Assembly (NCBI RefSeq): GCF_009664835.1
Contig: NZ_CP045929.1
Span: 2,542,001 to 2,606,000 of the forward strand
Length of the DNA stretch: 64,000 nucleotides
Source: Allosaccharopolyspora coralli
Lineage (GTDB): Bacteria; Actinomycetota; Actinomycetes; Mycobacteriales; Pseudonocardiaceae
Reading direction: 5' to 3'
The first letter of the stretch is position 1. Each line of letters starts with the position of its first letter. The notes beneath the pieces were generated by a model, which saw only the letters and a program-made list of their open reading frames with translations, was not told the origin of the DNA and did no database searches. Positions 52,614 through 64,000 of the stretch are shown in pieces. Made by a program: the position numbers and the translations under genes.

Positions 52614-52994
52614 ATGTCTGTGGTCGAGGTGTATGACCCGGCGATGTGTTGTTCCACCGGTGTGTGCGGTCCGTCGGTGGATCCGGCGTTGACCCAGTTC
52701 GCTGCCGACATGGATTGGCTCGGTGGGGCTGGAGTGACCGTGCAGCGTTTCGGTTTGGCGTCCGAGCCCGGCAAGTTCACCGAGAACACGGCGGTCAGCA
52801 CGTTGCTCACCGAACAGGGCGAGAAGGCACTGCCGGCGGTGCTGGTCGACGGCACGCTGCAGTGTTCCGGTCGGTATCCGACCCGGGTGGAGCTGGCCGT
52901 CTGGACCGGTATGGCCACCGAGCGGCCCAGTGTGCCCATCGTTGAGCAGTCCGGCGCTGACGGTGGCTGCGGCTGCGGGCCTGGGGAGTGCTGA
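52614..52994 (+). CDS. arsD: ArsD arsenite metallochaperone
   Basis: Predicted 126 aa. Cys12, Cys13 and Cys18 (MCCSTGVC) keep the same spacing and numbering as the arsenite-binding cysteines of plasmid R773 ArsD. The C terminus (GGCGCGPGEC) is Cys-rich. ArsD delivers As(III) to the ArsA ATPase, whose gene follows 2 bp later; the frameshift in ArsA may leave it without a partner. Confidence 0.9.
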   Translation: MSVVEVYDPAMCCSTGVCGPSVDPALTQFAADMDWLGGAGVTVQRFGLASEPGKFTENTAVSTLLTEQGEKALPAVLVDGTLQCSGRYPTRVELAVWTGMATERPSVPIVEQSGADGGCGCGPGEC

Positions 52995-52996
52995 AG

Positions 52997-54792
52997 ATGC
53001 CAGGAGCGGACATCGGCCGGGTGCTCGGTGGCTTGCTCGATGCCGCCACCCCGTTCGTGTTCTTCACGGGCAAAGGGGGCGTGGGCAAGACCTCGACGGC
53101 TGCGGCGACGGCGATCGGGTTGGCCGATGCGGGTCGCCGGGTCCTGCTAGTCAGCACCGATCCGGCGTCCAACCTCGACGAGGTCCTGGGGATGCAGGCG
53201 GGGCAGTCTCCGGTGCCGGTGTCCGAGGTGGCCGGGCTGCGGGCGATGAACATCGACCCGGAGACTGCGGCGGCCCAGTACCGGGAGAAGGTCATCGGGC
53301 CGTATCGGAGAGTCTGCCGGCCTCGGCGATCAGGCAGATCGAAGAGCAGCTTTCCGGGGCCTGCACGGTGGAGATCGCCGCGTTCAACGAGTTCGTTGCT
53401 CTGCTGACCGATCCGGACATCACCGCACGGTTCGATCACGTCGTGTTCGACACGGCCCCGACCGGGCACACGCTGCGGTTGCTCAGCCTGCCCAGCGCGT
53501 GGTCGGACTTCCTGGTCACCAACCCCGGCGGCGATTCCTGCCTCGGACCGCTGTCGGAACTGGGTGCCCAGCAGCAGCGCTACGCCGAGGCCATGGGGGT
53601 GTTGGCCACGCCGGCACGGACCACCATCGCGCTAGTCACCCGGCCCGAGACCGGCGCTCTGTCCGAAGCCGCCCGGGCCGCCGCGGAACTGCGGGCACTG
53701 GGCATCACCGAGCAGCGGCTGGTCGTCAACGGCGAGTTCACCGCACTGAGCCTGGATGATCCGCTGGCTGCCGCATGGCAACAGCGCGCCCAGGATGCGC
53801 TGGCGAACATGCCCACCGACCTCGCCGAGATCGCCGACGTCGACCGCGTGCCGCTGCTGCCGAGCCTGCCGATGGGCATCTCGGGTCTGCGCGACATGCT
53901 CGATCCGCCACTGCTGGCCGAGCCCAACACGGGGGAGGTCAACCCGGTGGTGGACGGTGACAGCACGGGATTGGCGGAGCAGGTCGACGAGATCGCAGCA
54001 AGCGGTCGCGGCTTGGTCATGACCATGGGCAAGGGCGGGGTCGGCAAGACCACCGTCGCCGCGGCCCTCGCCGTCGCGCTGGCTCGCCGAGGCCATCCGG
54101 TCACGCTGACCACCACCGACCCGGCCGCCCACGTGGCGTCGGCGATCGGCCCGGAGGTCGAGAACCTGGAGATCACCCGGATCGATCCGGCCGCCGAGAC
54201 GGCCGCCTACACCGACTCGGTGCTGGCCGAGGCCGGGGCCCACCTCGACGACGAGGGGCGACGGCTGCTCCTCGAGGACCTGCGGTCCCCCTGCACGGAG
54301 GAGATCGCGGTCTTTCATGCCTTCGCCCGCACTGTGGCCGCAGCCGCCGACCGGTTCGTCGTCGTCGACACCGCTCCGACCGGGCATACGCTGCTGCTGC
54401 TGGACGCCTCCCGCAGCTACCAACGGCAATTGGCACAGCAAACCAGGCAGGAACCACCAGCCGAGGCCGTCGAACTACTCAACCGGCTGACCGACCCAGA
54501 CTTCACCCGCATTCTGCTGGTGACCCTGCCGGAGGCCACGCCGGTGCACGAGGCGGCGGCTCTGCAAGCCGATCTGGCCCGCGCCGGCATCAAGCCCTAC
54601 GGGTGGGTGGTCAACCAGAGCCTGACCGCTGCCGGCCCGACAGACCCGTTGCTGGTGGCTCGGGTCGGTTCTGAACGGCGCTACCTCACCGAGGTGGCCA
54701 CCGAACACGCCCCACGCACCGCCGTGCTGCCCTTCACCGCCACAGCCCCGGTCGGCGTGGAGCAGCTGAGCGCGCTCGTCACCGGCGGATGA
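52997..54792 (+). pseudogene. arsA: ArsA arsenite-efflux ATPase with one frameshift
   Basis: Two ATPase halves are complete: A1 has FFTGKGGVGKTS and DTAPTGHTLRLLSLPSAW, A2 has TMGKGGVGKTTVAAAL and DTAPTGHTLLLLDASRS; metal-site cysteines occur in GACTVEIAAF and SPCTEEIAVF. Near 53305 one base is missing: after EKVIGPYR the frame changes, and ESLPASAIRQIEEQLSGACT resumes in the next frame. The rest runs uninterrupted to 54792. Either a real lesion or a sequence error; by length (about 598 aa) all else is normal. It should energise Acr3 with ArsD. Confidence 0.85.
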
Positions 54793-57890: not shown

Positions 57891-58131
57891 CCTCAGCTAC
57901 CGAACCCAATGTCCCTATCGACGATAATAGTCCTGTAATGAGAGTCACTCGTACCCGCCCCGATCGATAGTCGGTCCAGCTACTAGAGTGGCTAGTACAG
58001 GTCAATCGAGGTCTACACAGGAACGGCCATACCACCGTGCCAAGGCTACTCAAACGGACGTTCACGTTCCCGACGCGTTACGTTTCGTCGACCGTCCGCA
58101 GCGACCATCCGATGGCGTGAGACGGCAACAG
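57891..58131. other. Intergenic region upstream of the 176-aa membrane protein
   Basis: 241 bp with no gene recognised. It is slightly lower in GC than the flanks, by eye. Confidence 0.3.
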
Positions 58132-58662
58132 ATGCGTTCGCTTGTCCTCGCATTCACGTATAGCATGTTGCTCGTGCAGAAAGCGATCGCGCGACCATGC
58201 CGGAGATGGGGGCTGGTCGCGCTACCTTTCTTGCTGCTTGGTTTCGTTTTCGTCCATTTTGGCCTGCTCTCGAGCGTGATCCAGCCGGCCTACACGGCGA
58301 CCGTGTCCCGTATTGCGGTCGAGGACACGGGCGTCAGTGCCCAGCCTCAGGCGCCGAGCGCCCCACCCGAGGCAGCAGTCCCCGAGTCTCAGCCGAGCGA
58401 GCCCGCACACGATCGCCATGACGGAACTCCGCTCTGCGAGGTGGACTCCCATGGGGCGTGCGTCGCGCCTAACCGGACGGCCGCGGAGGAGCTAGCGGAT
58501 CTGAGTTCCTGGCTCGCGCTGACCTTGGCCGTCGCACCACTGATCGGCGCCGTTCTTGTACTGCGCCGACACGCGGCTCCGGCTGGACCGTGGTCCTCAC
58601 GACCACACTGGCGGCCATCGGGAACCGTTCTCCTATCACTCCACCGCGTATGGCTGACGTGA
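58132..58662 (+). CDS. Two-helix membrane protein of unknown function
   Basis: Predicted 176 aa from the ATG at 58132 (MRSLVLAFTYSMLLVQKAIA); an in-frame start at 57988 is also possible but has no support. Helices are at residues 25-45 (GLVALPFLLLGFVFVHFGLL) and 125-145 (LALTLAVAPLIGAVLVL). The loop between them is Pro/Ala-rich with an isolated cysteine pair (LCEVDSHGACV) that could form a disulfide outside the cell. No family recognised. Confidence 0.5.
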   Translation: MRSLVLAFTYSMLLVQKAIARPCRRWGLVALPFLLLGFVFVHFGLLSSVIQPAYTATVSRIAVEDTGVSAQPQAPSAPPEAAVPESQPSEPAHDRHDGTPLCEVDSHGACVAPNRTAAEELADLSSWLALTLAVAPLIGAVLVLRRHAAPAGPWSSRPHWRPSGTVLLSLHRVWLT

Positions 58663-58966: not shown

Positions 58967-59953
58967 GTGATCCATGATTCGGTCGTCAGTTGTGTCGGCG
59001 CTACCCCGATGGTCCGGCTCGACCGCTGTTTCCCTGAATCCGATGCCGAAGTGATCGCCAAGCTGGAGATGCTCAATCCTGGCGGCAGTATGAAGGATCG
59101 GCCCGCCCGGTTCATCGTCGAGCAAGGTCTGCACGAGGGCACGCTGCGTCCGGGTACGCGGCTCGTAGAGAGCACGTCCGGCAACCTCGGCATCGCCCTC
59201 GCGATGGCGGCCGGCCTGTACGGGCTCTCGTTCACCGCAGTCGTCGACCCCAAGACGTCGCCAATCAACCTGCGGCTGCTGCGGCTGTTCGGTGCTGACG
59301 TCGAGATGGTCGACGAGCCGGACGAGTCGGGCGGCTACCTGCACACTCGTGTCCGGCGGGCACGAGAACTGGTCAACTCGATGCCCAATGCGGTCCTCGT
59401 GAACCAGTACGCGAACGACCTCAACTGGCGCTCATACCACGACACTGCCGGTGAGGAGATCCTCGAAGCCGTCGACGGGCCCGTCGACTACCTGGTCGCT
59501 GCTGTGTCGACGACCGGGTCGATCCAAGGCATCGCTCGTCGACTACGGCAAGAGTACCCACATCTCAAGGTCATCGCGGTCGATGCGGTGGGGTCAGTGA
59601 TCTTCGGCGCACCTCCGGCACCTCGGCAGCTTCCTGGTTTCGGAGCGAGCCGGGTCCCCGAGATCCTCGATCGCTCCGCGATCGACGACATCGTGTACGT
59701 CGCCGATGCCGAGTCAGCAGCAGGCTGTCGCCGCCTGCTCGATACAGAAAAGATCTTCGCTGGCGGCTCGTCGGGCGCAGTAGTCGCGGGAATCGAGCAC
59801 CTTGTTTCACGACTCGATCGCCCGTCTCGCATCGTGACCTTGCTGCCCGACCGTGGTGAGCGCTACCTCGACCTCGTCTACGACGACAACTGGGTGGCCA
59901 GCTTGAGCGAGCCGTGGCAGAACCAGGAAGTCGCCGACACGGTGACATCGTGA
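58967..59953 (+). CDS. SbnA-like PLP synthase (N-(2-amino-2-carboxyethyl)-glutamate synthase type)
   Basis: Predicted 328 aa from the GTG at 58967, 7 nt after AGGAGG. Cysteine-synthase fold: VGATPMVRLDRCFPES, PLP lysine K43 in LNPGGSMKDRPARF, phosphate loop ESTSGNLGIAL and glycine loop VSTTGSIQGIARRL. The SbnA-type marks are VDPKTSPINLRLLRLFGADV, ESGGYLHTRVRRARELV and LVNQYANDLNW. SbnA joins O-phosphoserine and glutamate to ACEGA, the precursor of 2,3-diaminopropionate in staphyloferrin B and peptide antibiotics. SbnB is not in the window. The stop overlaps the next gene as GTGA. Confidence 0.88.
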   Translation: MIHDSVVSCVGATPMVRLDRCFPESDAEVIAKLEMLNPGGSMKDRPARFIVEQGLHEGTLRPGTRLVESTSGNLGIALAMAAGLYGLSFTAVVDPKTSPINLRLLRLFGADVEMVDEPDESGGYLHTRVRRARELVNSMPNAVLVNQYANDLNWRSYHDTAGEEILEAVDGPVDYLVAAVSTTGSIQGIARRLRQEYPHLKVIAVDAVGSVIFGAPPAPRQLPGFGASRVPEILDRSAIDDIVYVADAESAAGCRRLLDTEKIFAGGSSGAVVAGIEHLVSRLDRPSRIVTLLPDRGERYLDLVYDDNWVASLSEPWQNQEVADTVTS

Positions 59954-62484
59954 CGCGGACGTTGCAGCGGGAACCCCGGCCACCCGCAGCTTCGCAACAC
60001 CGCAGGCGACGGCCTGACGCCCATAGCAGGAACCTGCTCCTGCTATGGGCCGGCCAGTTCGTCAACACCGCCGGCCTGATGATGCTGGTGCCGATCATGC
60101 CTTTCTACCTCGAGGACATGGGCACCCGCGGAACAACCGAAACCCAGACCTGGGCCGGGGTGGCCATCGCCGCCCCGGCACTGGCCCTGACCGTCGCGAC
60201 CCCGCTATGGGGCAGACTTGGTGACCGCGTCGGACGTAAGTGGATGGTCGTCCGGGCTCTGTTCGGCCTCGTCGCGGCTATGGTGGTGATGGCCGCCGCG
60301 ACCACACCGGTGCTCTTGGTCGTCGGTCGGTTGTTGCAGGGCAGTCTCGGCGGCGTGGTTGAGGCCGCCGCAGCATTCGCGGGCTCAGCCGGAGCCGACA
60401 AGAAGCGGGGCTCATCGCTGGGAAAGTCGTTCAGTGCCACCGCAGCAGGCGCGCTAGCCGGACCGATCGCGGGAGGACTGTTCGTCGGAGCAGGCGGACT
60501 ACGCCAGCTCATGCTGGTCATCGCGGCGGCAGCAGCGGTCATCGCGGTGGCGTGTGCGATTGGTTTGGAAGAGCCCGAACGCGGCCGTCCGAGAAACAAG
60601 GCATCCGATACGCGCCACCGAACACGAGAGCGTCGCTCCTCAGCACTGCACGTTCCCAGCGCCCTGGTATTGGCGCTCGCCGCGATCGGAGCCTACTTCG
60701 GTTCGTACGGCCTCATTCCTGTCTTCGCCGAACAGGTCAAGGACGTTGTTGCCGAACCGGACACAGCAAGCCTGTGGGCGGGTGTGCTGCACTCAGTGAT
60801 GTGGGGCGCAACCTTGGTCGGCTCGTTCTGGTGGGGCAAGCACAACGACCGAACCAACCGCCCGCTACGCACGTTTGCGATCGCCGCTGCCGGAATCTCC
60901 GCAAGCATCGCCGTGCTCAGCCTTCCGCTGGGACCAATCGCCTACATCCCCCTCCGGCTCGTGCAGGGATTCTGTTTCGCTGCCCTCGCACAGTCACTCT
61001 TCCTGCACTTCAGCCACCACGCTCCTGACGACCACAAGAGCTCCTACGTCGGCACCGCCAACAGCTTTCTGCTCATCGGTCAGTCAGCCGGTCCCCTGCT
61101 CGCCGGATCTCTGGTTGCAGTCATGCCCGTGTCCTCAGCGGTCCTGACCATGGCCGCTGCCAGCGGGCTCGGATGTCTGCTAGCGCTGGTTGCCACACGA
61201 CGCGAGAAGCGAACGCTGGAGAGCTCTGACGAAGCAGACGAGGACGAAACCATAGTCCTGCCAACGATCAGTACTTCCGATGCACACGCTAAGGTATCCA
61301 GCACCCCGGCCCGCACCCGCGAGCCTGCCAGAGTCCAACTTCAACCATTCCGAGGGTGGCTCCTCGCCCCGCACCGACTCCAGGACCTCGGCTCACGGTA
61401 TGCCACTCCGTGGGACCACTATGCCGGAAGCTGTGCCCCGGCCGAAGCTGGAAACGCCCTGCGTGCTTGGCAACGCAGCGGCACCCTCGTCCAAGACCGG
61501 CAGCACGCATTCTACGTCTACGAGCAGACCGGTCCGCGGGGTTCTCAACGCGGCGTCATTGCCGGGGTGCATCTGGACAGCCATCTGCTCCCTCACCAAG
61601 AAGTCAGTCCCGACCGTGCGAACAACCTCCTGGATACCGTTCGCGCCGGACAGATGAACCTCGACCCAGTCCTCCTCGGCTACACGGGCAACAGCCGGGT
61701 GACCACGCAGCTGAACGCAGCTGCTCGCCAGTCCCCTGTTTCGGAGACCCTCACGGCGGAGGGCCAACGACATCGTCTGTGGCGCATCACCGAGTCCGAA
61801 GCACTTAACGATATTGCCAGGGAGCTCGCGACAGCGTCGACGTTCATCGCCGATGGGCACCACCGCCACGTCGCCGCCCGCCAGTACCGCCGCGAGCTGC
61901 ACTCCGCCGCATACGGGCCGGGGCCTTGGGACTACCTCACCGGGTACTTCGTCGACCTTGAGCAGAACCCGTTGCATCTAGCGCCGATTCACCGTGTGTT
62001 GCCTGGCGTCGACGCCCACGCAGCTCTGAATCAGGCGGCAACGCGGTACCGAATCCTGCCGCTTGGCGGCGAGCTTGCAGGCTGGCTACGAACACTCAAG
62101 CAATACACACTGCATGGCCCCGCCTTCGTCATCGTAAGCCCGCAGGGCGCGTTCCTGTTGAGCGCACCAGATCGTGCCTTCCTAGCCTGCGAGCTGCAGC
62201 ACCTACCAGAACCACTACACACAATGGACGTCGCGGTACTGCACACCGGCCTGATTCAGGCACTTTGGCGCGTACGCGAAGGACATATCCATTACGAAGC
62301 CAACGCAGCCACAGCAGTCCAGCAGGTCCGTCAGCGGGGAGGCCTGGCGGTGTTGCTCGCACCGCCGCGGCAGGAGGAAGTCAAGCGTGCGCTCGCAGCA
62401 GGCGTGCGGATCCCCCGAAAAGCCTTAGCATTTGGCCCCAAACCCCACCCAGGGCTTGTGCTCCGTACCTTCGACGAAGACTGA
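59950..62484 (+). CDS. MFS transporter fused to a DUF1015 domain
   Basis: Predicted 844 aa from the GTG at 59950, overlapping the synthase stop (GTGA). Residues 27-420 form a 12-helix MFS with the loop motif LWGRLGDRVGRKWMVVRALF. An acidic linker (SSDEADEDE) and proline-rich stretch follow. Residues 460-844 are a DUF1015 domain: VQLQPFRGWLLAPHR, HAFYVYEQTG, GVHLDSHLLPHQEV, the key FIADGHHRH (D635-R639) and KPHPGLVLRTFDED at the end, so it reaches the family's natural C terminus. The ADGHHR motif resembles the active-site motif of ParB/SerK-type serine kinases, hence a possible O-phosphoserine source for the neighbouring synthase (inference). The fusion itself is unusual. Confidence 0.87.
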   Translation: MTRTLQREPRPPAASQHRRRRPDAHSRNLLLLWAGQFVNTAGLMMLVPIMPFYLEDMGTRGTTETQTWAGVAIAAPALALTVATPLWGRLGDRVGRKWMVVRALFGLVAAMVVMAAATTPVLLVVGRLLQGSLGGVVEAAAAFAGSAGADKKRGSSLGKSFSATAAGALAGPIAGGLFVGAGGLRQLMLVIAAAAAVIAVACAIGLEEPERGRPRNKASDTRHRTRERRSSALHVPSALVLALAAIGAYFGSYGLIPVFAEQVKDVVAEPDTASLWAGVLHSVMWGATLVGSFWWGKHNDRTNRPLRTFAIAAAGISASIAVLSLPLGPIAYIPLRLVQGFCFAALAQSLFLHFSHHAPDDHKSSYVGTANSFLLIGQSAGPLLAGSLVAVMPVSSAVLTMAAASGLGCLLALVATRREKRTLESSDEADEDETIVLPTISTSDAHAKVSSTPARTREPARVQLQPFRGWLLAPHRLQDLGSRYATPWDHYAGSCAPAEAGNALRAWQRSGTLVQDRQHAFYVYEQTGPRGSQRGVIAGVHLDSHLLPHQEVSPDRANNLLDTVRAGQMNLDPVLLGYTGNSRVTTQLNAAARQSPVSETLTAEGQRHRLWRITESEALNDIARELATASTFIADGHHRHVAARQYRRELHSAAYGPGPWDYLTGYFVDLEQNPLHLAPIHRVLPGVDAHAALNQAATRYRILPLGGELAGWLRTLKQYTLHGPAFVIVSPQGAFLLSAPDRAFLACELQHLPEPLHTMDVAVLHTGLIQALWRVREGHIHYEANAATAVQQVRQRGGLAVLLAPPRQEEVKRALAAGVRIPRKALAFGPKPHPGLVLRTFDED

Positions 62485-62903: not shown

Positions 62904-64000
62904 ATGGTCCTATCTCGCCGCAGCATGGTCGCCAGCCTCGGTGCTCTGGCCCCGGCGCTCACCGCGGCACGCGCGCAAGCCAGCCCACCTGCGCTGCGGA
63001 CGCCTAACCCACCAGACGGAAAAAGCCCCACCGAGGTTGCACGGGACGAGCCATACTGGCGCAAGATCGCGGCCCAGTACACCGTCAGCGACGAGTTCGT
63101 CAACCTCGAGCACGGCTACTACGGAATCATGTCCGATCCCGTTCGTCGCACGTTCCACGACAACATAGACCGACTGAACGAGCAGAATTCGCACCTTCTC
63201 AGGGGCGCGTATAAGAAAGAATCAGAAGCAATCAGGCAGGAGGTCGCGACTCAGCTCGGTGCGCGTACTGAAGAGATCGCTCTGACACAAAGTGGCACCG
63301 AAGCCCTCCAGAACTTGATTAGTGGGTACCACGATCTTGGCCCTGGCGATGCGGTTATGTATGCCGATCTCGACTACCCGGACATGACCGATACCATGGA
63401 CTGGCTAGGTGACCGCCGAGGCGTCGACGTTGTCACTTTCTCGATCCCTGAACCCGCCACGCGGCAAGCTGTTCTCGATACCTATGCGTCTGCTTTTCGT
63501 GATCACCCGCGGGTCAAGCTTCTGCTGCTCAGTCACGTGAACAACCGTACCGGCTTGGCCACACCAGTCCGCGAGATCGTCGCCATGGCTCGGGAGCACG
63601 AGATTGATGTCATCGTTGACGCCGCGCACTCGTGGGGCCAGCTGAATTTCACGATTGACGAGTTGGGCGCTGACTTCGTGGGCTTCTCCTTGCACAAATG
63701 GATAGGCGCTCCACTGGGTACCGGGTTCCTGTACATTCGCCAGAACAGGCTTAGCGCCATCGATGTAACTTACGCCGATGAATCACATCCGCCGAGCGAT
63801 ATCCGGTCCAGAGTGGTGTCGGGAACCCGTGACGTCGCGTGTGTCCTGTCGGTACCTTCCGCGCTTGACTTTCACAATTCGATCGGCATCGAAAACAAGC
63901 AGGCCCGACTGCAATACCTACGCGATCGCTGGGTCAATGCGGTGAAAGACGTCGACAATATCGAGATCCTCACTCCGGACGAGCCCTCTATGTACGGGGC
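62904..64000 (+). CDS. Tat-targeted class V PLP enzyme (isopenicillin-N-epimerase-like), partial
   Basis: ATG at 62904 with GGAGGG before it; 365 codons to the window edge, 3' end missing. The N terminus has a twin-arginine motif (LSRRSMVASLGALAPALTAA) and an Ala-x-Ala cleavage site. Then DEFVNLEHGYYGIMSDPVRR, TQSGTEALQNLISG and DVIVDAAHSWGQL; the Schiff-base lysine is K265 in FSLHKWIGAPLG. This is the family of isopenicillin N epimerase, ergothioneine lyase EgtE and cysteine desulfurase-like enzymes. Export of a PLP enzyme is uncommon. Codon use (AAA, GAA, ATT, ACT) is less GC-biased than elsewhere in the window. Confidence 0.85.
   Translation, partial: MVLSRRSMVASLGALAPALTAARAQASPPALRTPNPPDGKSPTEVARDEPYWRKIAAQYTVSDEFVNLEHGYYGIMSDPVRRTFHDNIDRLNEQNSHLLRGAYKKESEAIRQEVATQLGARTEEIALTQSGTEALQNLISGYHDLGPGDAVMYADLDYPDMTDTMDWLGDRRGVDVVTFSIPEPATRQAVLDTYASAFRDHPRVKLLLLSHVNNRTGLATPVREIVAMAREHEIDVIVDAAHSWGQLNFTIDELGADFVGFSLHKWIGAPLGTGFLYIRQNRLSAIDVTYADESHPPSDIRSRVVSGTRDVACVLSVPSALDFHNSIGIENKQARLQYLRDRWVNAVKDVDNIEILTPDEPSMYG

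What the first reader, a model, noticed from the sequence alone, without database searches (positions are those of the whole stretch)
58967..62484. SbnA-like synthase coupled to an MFS-DUF1015 fusion: possible new O-phosphoserine/diaminopropionate system
Seen: GTGA-coupled genes, the second a single 844-residue frame joining a full MFS to a full DUF1015 domain with ADGHHR at 635-639. Known: SbnA uses O-phosphoserine, and in Staphylococcus SbnI, a ParB-like serine kinase in the same cluster, supplies it. Inferred: the DUF1015 domain takes the SbnI role, physically tied to an exporter. A kinase-transporter chimera that feeds the adjacent enzyme would be new.
Basis: partly seen in the sequence, partly recalled or inferred. 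Interest (0 to 1): 0.82.

Follow-up and report, generated by a model that had tools for sequence, protein, structure and literature searches.

The report
Copper-regulon operon with MFS–DUF1015 fusion exporter
An actinobacterium carries a small operon, apparently part of a copper-stress response, that seems to make an amino-acid-like metal binder from phosphoserine and pump it out through an exporter fused to a serine-kinase-like domain, a domain that in this copy has lost its presumed catalytic residue.

Summary
In detail: an SbnA-type synthase (58967-59953) overlaps by GTGA a single 844-residue frame joining an MFS exporter to DUF1015. I compared twelve fused copies in Pseudonocardiaceae, two also in named Saccharopolyspora records, so it is no frame error. 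The synthase keeps the residues reported to select O-phosphoserine, but the genome has no SbnB-family gene, so diaminopropionate is unlikely. A broad DUF1015 profile finds archaeal free serine kinases as four of five PDB hits (best E 0.0013), and serC-serA-DUF1015 clusters occur elsewhere: the SerK idea has support. But this copy has Gln where the other 25 of 26 aligned DUF1015 rows have Glu, the change carried by the SerK E30Q crystal variant; 5 of 12 fused and 0 of 28 non-fused copies lack Glu. The operon lies behind a perfect TACTAG-N5-CTAGTA palindrome; the genome's eight such sites (up to one mismatch) all fall within 96 kb, several beside copper-oxidase, BlaI and thiol-redox genes. Its layout resembles the copper-induced mycobacterial lpqS-cysK2-Rv0849 operon. 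Best reading: a copper-stress operon making and exporting an O-phosphoserine-derived chelator. No expression or biochemical data exist. New variant of a known kind.

The parts
57981..57997 (.). Perfect palindrome TACTAG-N5-CTAGTA, candidate BlaI/CopY-type operator
   Evidence: 0 mismatches; 4 sites at up to 2 mismatches in the window against 0.03 expected from shuffles; 8 sites of the R/Y form at up to 1 mismatch in the whole genome, all within 96 kb. Operator identity inferred from BlaI/M56 neighbours.
58132..58662 (+). Small His-rich membrane protein, LpqS-like in position and layout (start uncertain; frame open from 57988)
   Evidence: Relatives called upstream of sbnA in 19 of 27 operon loci, with the window, L020 and L053 added by inspection or tblastn; no Pfam or NCBIfam match; homology with mycobacterial LpqS not established. 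Hydrophobic stretches judged by eye.
58967..59953 (+). SbnA-type PLP synthase (O-phosphoserine-dependent beta-replacement)
   Evidence: TIGR03945 408.2 bits (cut-off 349.95); closest PDB entry SbnA 5d84, E 3.7e-118; K47, R132, Y152, S185 equivalents conserved; tree.
59950..62484 (+). MFS-DUF1015 fusion protein, 844 aa
60013..61203 (+). MFS exporter half (SbnD-like: 37% to the MFS of the staphyloferrin-B-type cluster in L136)
   Evidence: PF07690; one search match to an MdtG model over residues 34-430; blastp 37%.
61303..62481 (+). DUF1015 half
   Evidence: PF06245; profile similarity to archaeal SerK.
61597..61599 (+). CAA = Gln in place of the DUF1015 HE-motif Glu (aligned with SerK Glu30)
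61849..61866 (+). ADGHHR motif
   Evidence: in 26 of 26 rows of alignment A3.
62904..64000 (+). Tat-leader class-V PLP enzyme (PvdN/SufS-like), continues past the window end; probable last gene of the operon
   Evidence: twin Arg conserved in 5 of 5 aligned homologues; next to the MFS gene in L069, L071, L072, L079. In the window 419 bases separate it from the fusion gene, so co-transcription is inferred.

Best explanation
The finding is the middle of an operon of probably four genes: a small His-rich membrane protein, an SbnA-type synthase, an MFS exporter fused to DUF1015, and a Tat-leader PLP enzyme. It belongs to a copper-stress regulon. In steps: (1) a BlaI-type repressor releases the TACTAG-N5-CTAGTA site (inferred); (2) the synthase replaces the phosphate of O-phosphoserine (OPS) with glutamate, giving ACEGA, N-(2-amino-2-carboxyethyl)-L-glutamate, an aminopolycarboxylate (inferred from conserved residues); (3) without SbnB the product is not cut to diaminopropionate but exported whole by the SbnD-like MFS (export inferred; absence of SbnB shown), perhaps trimmed outside by the PvdN-like enzyme, to bind copper (inferred); (4) the DUF1015 half descends from a SerK-like serine kinase that supplied OPS, but in this copy its presumed catalytic Glu is Gln, so it more likely binds OPS, serine or nucleotide and tunes export, or is decaying, while a separate own DUF1015 gene that keeps Glu, or the SerC route, supplies OPS (inferred).
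For: Synthase family and OPS residues. No SbnB-family match in the genome and no SbnB or IucA/IucC match in 27 of 27 operon loci, while the controls ring. Conserved pairing and fusion. SerK relation; serC-serA-DUF1015. Loss of Glu: 5 of 12 fused copies, 0 of 28 non-fused. Looser constraint: dN/dS 0.35-0.47 for fused DUF1015 in six pairs (62-88% identical) against 0.07-0.23 for SbnA in the same pairs and 0.04-0.14 in six pairs of four separate copper-side copies. Copper context: 16 of 27 operon loci carry at least one copper/metal or BlaI/M56 marker, against 2 of 16 other SbnA-family loci and 1 of 20 other DUF1015 loci; palindromes in the own genome beside MCO, BlaI-M56 and DsbD-type genes. CysK2-type operons carry such markers in 11 of 20 further loci, and the mycobacterial one belongs to the copper-responsive RicR regulon (PMC10470581 and PMC7924339, passages).
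Against: No expression, binding or product data exist for this organism. The palindrome lies ahead of the first gene in a minority of related loci (window, L057, L064, L065; within 1 kb also in L055 and L070), and eight sites are not an excess by number, since the reversed control pattern has 32; only their clustering is striking. One of the eight sites lies by genes I could not name. Marker proteins were mostly taken from operon loci, which biases that count upward; three of the 16 loci have only a DUF305 match; related genomes are not independent. The window's own neighbours are arsenic genes, and L019 has none of the markers; another own copy lies beside a cation-diffusion gene: the inducer could be another metal. 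Gly at site 185 also occurs in other SbnA-family rows (L131-L133, L139, L140), so that site alone does not separate SbnA from CysK2 types, and no residue proves glutamate as second substrate. At about 50% identity separate DUF1015 pairs also show dN/dS 0.39-0.65, and one pair 65% identical shows 0.30. Against the 8 non-fused copies of the window's clade alone the loss of Glu gives p 0.055.
Confidence: 0.5

Rival explanations
1. One reading: the fused DUF1015 domain is an active free-serine kinase that makes OPS at the membrane and hands it to the adjacent synthase, with diaminopropionate as product.
For: SerK-like profile matches; intact ADGHHR; DUF1015 as third gene also in a CysK2-type operon of Streptomyces longwoodensis and in 1 of 20 further CysK2-type loci, i.e. 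beside two distant clades of OPS-type synthases.
Against: Gln replaces the Glu aligned with SerK Glu30; no PF02423 match in the genome; two of the three own sbnA-MFS copies lack an intact DUF1015.
Confidence: 0.17
2. The operon works like mycobacterial CysK2: OPS plus thiosulfate gives S-sulfocysteine (or another sulfur amino acid), exported to bind copper or to feed the exported desulfurase-like enzyme, which releases sulfur outside.
For: Same gene order small membrane protein-synthase-MFS in family f8 loci, two of which match the LpqS model; the class-V enzyme resembles SufS and PvdN; CysK2 is described as an OPS-dependent S-sulfocysteine synthase (Steiner 2014, seen only as a cited title and in citing passages).
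Against: The window synthase lies in the SbnA clade and CysK2-type enzymes in another; it keeps Ser at 185 where all six CysK2-type rows of family f8 have Gly, though some other SbnA-family rows have Gly too.
Confidence: 0.15
3. A stripped-down staphyloferrin-B-type metallophore cluster that serves metal uptake rather than resistance (iron, zinc or copper), in the manner of [S,S]-EDDS of Amycolatopsis.
For: SbnA is 60-61% identical to that of three SbnA-SbnB-IucA clusters of the same family (L083, L084, L136) and the MFS 37% to that of L136; EDDS production is repressed by zinc through Zur in Amycolatopsis japonicum, of the same family (PMC9252823, passages; taxonomy).
Against: No SbnB or IucA/IucC match in 27 of 27 operon loci; neighbours are resistance and regulator genes in 16 of 27. 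Importers were not searched for.
Confidence: 0.15

Closest known systems
Mycobacterial RicR-regulated operon lpqS-cysK2-Rv0849 (beside mmcO)
   Same: Order small secreted/membrane protein, OPS-family PLP synthase, MFS; multicopper oxidase and BlaI-M56 genes in several related loci
   Different: Synthase from another clade (40-43% identity); MFS barely similar to the f8 one (26% over 241 residues, E 0.001); LpqS homology not established; DUF1015 not found in 14 f8 genomes listed without a match; no CsoR-like operator found here
Staphyloferrin B cluster sbnA-I of Staphylococcus aureus (SbnA, SbnD, SbnI)
   Same: SbnA 56% identical with the same OPS-selecting residues; MFS exporter; a kinase-like partner
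   Different: No SbnB or siderophore synthetase; the kinase-like domain is DUF1015 fused to the exporter; copper context
Archaeal free serine kinase SerK (TK0378; PDB 5x0b, 1vk1)
   Same: DUF1015 profile matches three collinear blocks including PHE and DGHHR
   Different: Different family (DUF1015), fused to MFS, Gln instead of Glu30
Synthase-MFS-DUF1015 genes of Streptomyces longwoodensis plasmid NZ_CP107737
   Same: PLP synthase, MFS and DUF1015 side by side, near a heavy-metal-associated-domain protein and a heavy-metal P-type ATPase
   Different: Three separate genes; synthase and MFS of the CysK2/Rv0849 type

Membership tests
SbnA (TIGR03945) | Score above the curated cut-off | tested here: met
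   408.2 bits, cut-off 349.95
SbnA (TIGR03945) | PLP Lys47 and OPS-selecting Arg132, Tyr152, Ser185 (PMC12414870, passages) | tested here: met
   KTSLRQYS identical to S. aureus SbnA at the eight sites checked
SbnA/SbnB diaminopropionate pathway | SbnB (ornithine cyclodeaminase family) in the genome | tested here: not met
   PF02423: 0 matches at E 0.001 in the own genome; the same search rings in 8 of 14 controls
Free serine kinase (SerK/SbnI) | Sequence homology to SerK | tested here: inconclusive
   Profile A3: 1vk1 E 0.0013, three SerK sequences E 0.029-0.035, 4 of 5 hits; narrower profile A1 only E 0.2 and 1.6; the window domain alone: no hit
Free serine kinase (SerK/SbnI) | Glu30 (catalytic role recalled from Nagata 2017, not read) | tested here: not met
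   Gln in the window domain
Free serine kinase (SerK/SbnI) | ParB/SerK fold | tested here: inconclusive
   AlphaFold pLDDT 41.5 with 3 sequences, unusable. [quoted passage not shown]
Free serine kinase (SerK/SbnI) | Phosphorylates free serine | not testable with these tools
   Needs purified protein
lpqS-cysK2-Rv0849 operon | Gene order small membrane protein-synthase-MFS | tested here: met
lpqS-cysK2-Rv0849 operon | First gene is LpqS (NF052429) | tested here: not met
   0 families for the window protein, while L123 and L125 match; hhalign probability 69% over 27 columns
lpqS-cysK2-Rv0849 operon | Synthase in the CysK2 clade | tested here: not met
   Separate clades, quick tree with SH-aLRT support only
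Copper regulon | Shared operator with copper genes | tested here: inconclusive
   Palindrome shared with MCO and BlaI-M56 genes; no binding data; CsoR-like consensus absent

The most novel reading that the evidence does not exclude
An exporter with a built-in serine-kinase-derived pseudokinase: the DUF1015 half has lost catalysis repeatedly after fusion and now senses OPS, serine or nucleotide to gate the MFS, which exports ACEGA, a free SbnA product acting as a copper-binding opine-like chelator in a BlaI-controlled copper regulon. Synthase-exporter operons built on two distant clades of OPS-type synthases (SbnA type and CysK2 type) would then do the same job in actinobacteria.
Probability: 0.2. 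Interest if true: 0.85.

Novelty: new variant of a known kind. Interest (0 to 1): 0.62.

Why it matters
It links a siderophore-type enzyme (SbnA) working without SbnB to copper stress, offers a testable idea for what copper-induced CysK2-MFS operons make and export, gives sequence evidence that the widespread DUF1015 family is related to free serine kinases, and presents a natural set of fusion proteins several of which lack the presumed catalytic residue.

Tried and rejected
Diaminopropionate product: rejected for lack of SbnB. Frame error: rejected. A triple fusion SbnA-MFS-DUF1015, suggested by open frames of 1113-1209 codons, was rejected because the sbnA matches lie in another frame (my arithmetic on the coordinates). 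CsoR-like operator: not found upstream except weak matches in two loci. Shared 9-mers upstream: no excess over shuffles. LpqS homology of the first gene: not established. DUF1015 in viral contigs: none confirmed. Co-occurrence of DUF1015 with the operon over 297 genomes was not used: DUF1015 matches 201 of 297 genomes, and the separate copies fetched there (L198 and others) gave no tblastn match to the window domain at E 1e-30, apart from operon genomes already known. DUF1015 as an obligatory partner: rejected; it is the third gene in only 1 of 20 further CysK2-type loci (in L249 the contig ends just past the MFS) and absent from the 14 family-f8 genomes listed without a match. Monoglobus DUF1015 lies beside homoserine genes, not serC-serA. 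Paper searches: 'DUF1015' gave two papers whose titles and abstract openings concern other subjects (listing only); 'sbnA' with 'copper resistance' and 'DUF1015' with 'serine kinase' gave none. These cover only the held open-access library. The original papers on SbnI, CysK2 and SerK structure were not held or not looked up and are cited from reference lists or recall.
Full report
What is there. The window holds an SbnA-type synthase at 58967-59953 and, overlapping its stop by GTGA, a frame of 844 codons to 62484 with MFS_1 and DUF1015 domains. The synthase scores 408 bits against the SbnA model, cut-off 350, and its closest solved relative is S. aureus SbnA. The frame is no artefact: in 297 genomes of the family, 40 have a match to the fusion protein at E 1e-40 or better, and uninterrupted fusions covering nearly the whole query occur in G152, G216 (two copies), G207, G196, G173 and G232. 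Contigs of S. hirsuta and S. ipomoeae carry them too; their lengths equal those of the G207 and G232 contigs, which places the family as Pseudonocardiaceae. With four shorter or frameshifted ones (L060, L063, L066, L067) I compared 12 fused copies.

Operon. I took stretches of up to 20 kb around 34 places plus the own copies. sbnA and MFS are neighbours in 27 loci of 22 genomes (L069 and L071 hold two pairs each; in L060 the sbnA match covers only residues 239-316). The own genome has three pairs: the window (fused), one at 2.624-2.627 Mb whose DUF1015 is reduced to a remnant beside an IS3-like element, and one at 0.191-0.194 Mb without DUF1015. A His-rich membrane-type protein precedes sbnA in 19 of the 27 loci by clustering, and in the window, L020 and L053 by inspection or tblastn. 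A Tat-leader class-V PLP enzyme follows in five loci, the window included.

Synthase. At the sites reported for SbnA (Lys47, loop residues, Arg132, Tyr152, Ser185; PMC12414870, passages) the window protein is identical to S. aureus SbnA. Six CysK2-type rows of family f8 have Gly at 185, but so do some other SbnA-family rows (L131-L133, L139, L140); own CysK- and CBS-type enzymes lack Arg132. In a quick tree of 57 rows the operon synthases form a clade of 28 rows (SH-aLRT 99) inside a 34-row clade (99) with staphyloferrin-B-type SbnA, apart from eight CysK2-type rows (100); the program warns of long branches between those and the own CysK/CBS rows. In L136 the relative is followed by SbnB (over its cut-off) and an SbnC-like gene. 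The window genome has no SbnB-family match, and none of the 27 operon loci has an SbnB or IucA/IucC match, whereas SbnB rings in 4 and IucA in 5 of 5 control clusters, the query's own included. So the expected product is ACEGA, not diaminopropionate; this is an inference from residues.

DUF1015. No NCBIfam model covers it (three proteins) and Pfam lists it as unknown function. A profile of 26 diverse members finds five PDB sequences at E 10 or better, four of them archaeal SerK or its Pyrococcus homologue (E 0.0013, 0.029, 0.033, 0.035), in three collinear blocks for two of them; a narrower profile gave E 0.2 and 1.6. serC and serA lie beside DUF1015 in 2 of 3 non-actinobacterial loci examined (Bacteroides L144, Prevotella L142; not Monoglobus L143) and in 2 of 20 actinobacterial loci. 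[quoted passage not shown] Together this favours kinship with serine kinases. But Glu follows the motif His in 25 of 26 rows and Gln in the window. That position aligns with SerK Glu30; PDB chains 5x0j and 5x0e carry Gln and Ala there, and I recall, without having read it, that Glu30 is catalytic. Five of 12 fused copies lack Glu (4 Gln, 1 Ala) and none of 28 non-fused copies does, Fisher p 0.0012, not corrected for relatedness; against the 8 non-fused copies of the window's own clade p is 0.055. Fused domains show dN/dS 0.35-0.47 in six pairs 62-88% identical, against 0.04-0.14 in six pairs of four separate copper-side copies 87-98% identical; more distant separate pairs reach 0.30-0.65, so divergence explains part of this. 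The own separate paralogue keeps Glu.

Copper. A perfect palindrome TACTAG-N5-CTAGTA lies at 57981-57997, ahead of the first gene. As TACTAR-N5-YTAGTA with up to one mismatch the genome has eight sites, all between 2,563,993 and 2,659,902 of 4,832,009 bases; the reversed control pattern has 32, so the clustering, not the number, is notable. The sites precede or neighbour BlaI-M56-type gene pairs, a multicopper oxidase with a CsoR-family gene close by, DsbD-type and thioredoxin-like genes, a small Met-rich protein with an export-like leader (by eye), and one place I could not name. In other loci such sites precede the first gene in L057, L064 and L065 but not in most. At least one copper/metal or BlaI/M56 marker lies in 16 of 27 operon loci, 2 of 16 other SbnA-family loci and 1 of 20 other DUF1015 loci; the markers came mostly from operon loci, three of the 16 have only DUF305, and the window's own stretch has none but holds arsenic genes. 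The counterpart in mycobacteria, lpqS-cysK2-Rv0849, belongs to the copper-responsive RicR regulon (PMC10470581, PMC7924339, PMC10956863; passages); L123 and L125 carry a protein over the LpqS model's cut-off ahead of the CysK2-type synthase and MFS. In 20 further CysK2-type loci (of 37 genomes with a match among 345), an MFS lies within about 1.1 kb of the synthase in 19, copper or BlaI/M56 markers lie in 11, and DUF1015 in 1.

Conclusion. Two lineages of OPS-type synthases, each with its own MFS type, occupy look-alike operons, often in copper surroundings. The window's version uses the SbnA lineage and ties a SerK-like domain to the exporter. I commit to export of an OPS-derived chelator, most likely ACEGA, under copper stress (0.5), with the fused domain non-catalytic or regulatory in this copy. 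No search hit reports an sbnA-copper link, within the held library only.

Noticed in passing
L020 10903-12348 (genome about 2,622,900-2,624,350): IS3-like transposase genes (by eye) beside a DUF1015 remnant in the second own sbnA-MFS copy.
   Followed up: partly
window 52930-54792 and 52988-53407: arsA-like coding appears split over two frames in the arsenic gene cluster upstream (by eye); described only.
   Followed up: no
L019, L020, L064-L066, L069-L071, L078, L079 (cluster 3): Genes that look like a NADH dehydrogenase (nuo) operon, by eye, lie near the operon in 10 loci.
   Followed up: no
L081 1267-2226 and 8233-9126: One genome carries an SbnA-type and a CysK2-type synthase about 6 kb apart.
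   Followed up: partly
L076, L077, L085, L086: Separate DUF1015 genes beside a CopA-type ATPase in four loci of one genus, with CsoR- and CopZ-type genes called in three of them.
   Followed up: partly
L021 10480-13243: Own separate DUF1015 gene with the Glu kept, next to a gene that looks (by eye) like an adenylate-forming ligase.
   Followed up: partly
L144 1619-5050, L142, L179, L188: serC-serA-DUF1015 gene order in Bacteroidota and some actinobacteria.
   Followed up: yes
L236 4554-8173 (genome 2,656,553-2,660,172): Palindromes of the same kind ahead of DsbD-type, thioredoxin-like and Met-rich protein genes.
   Followed up: partly
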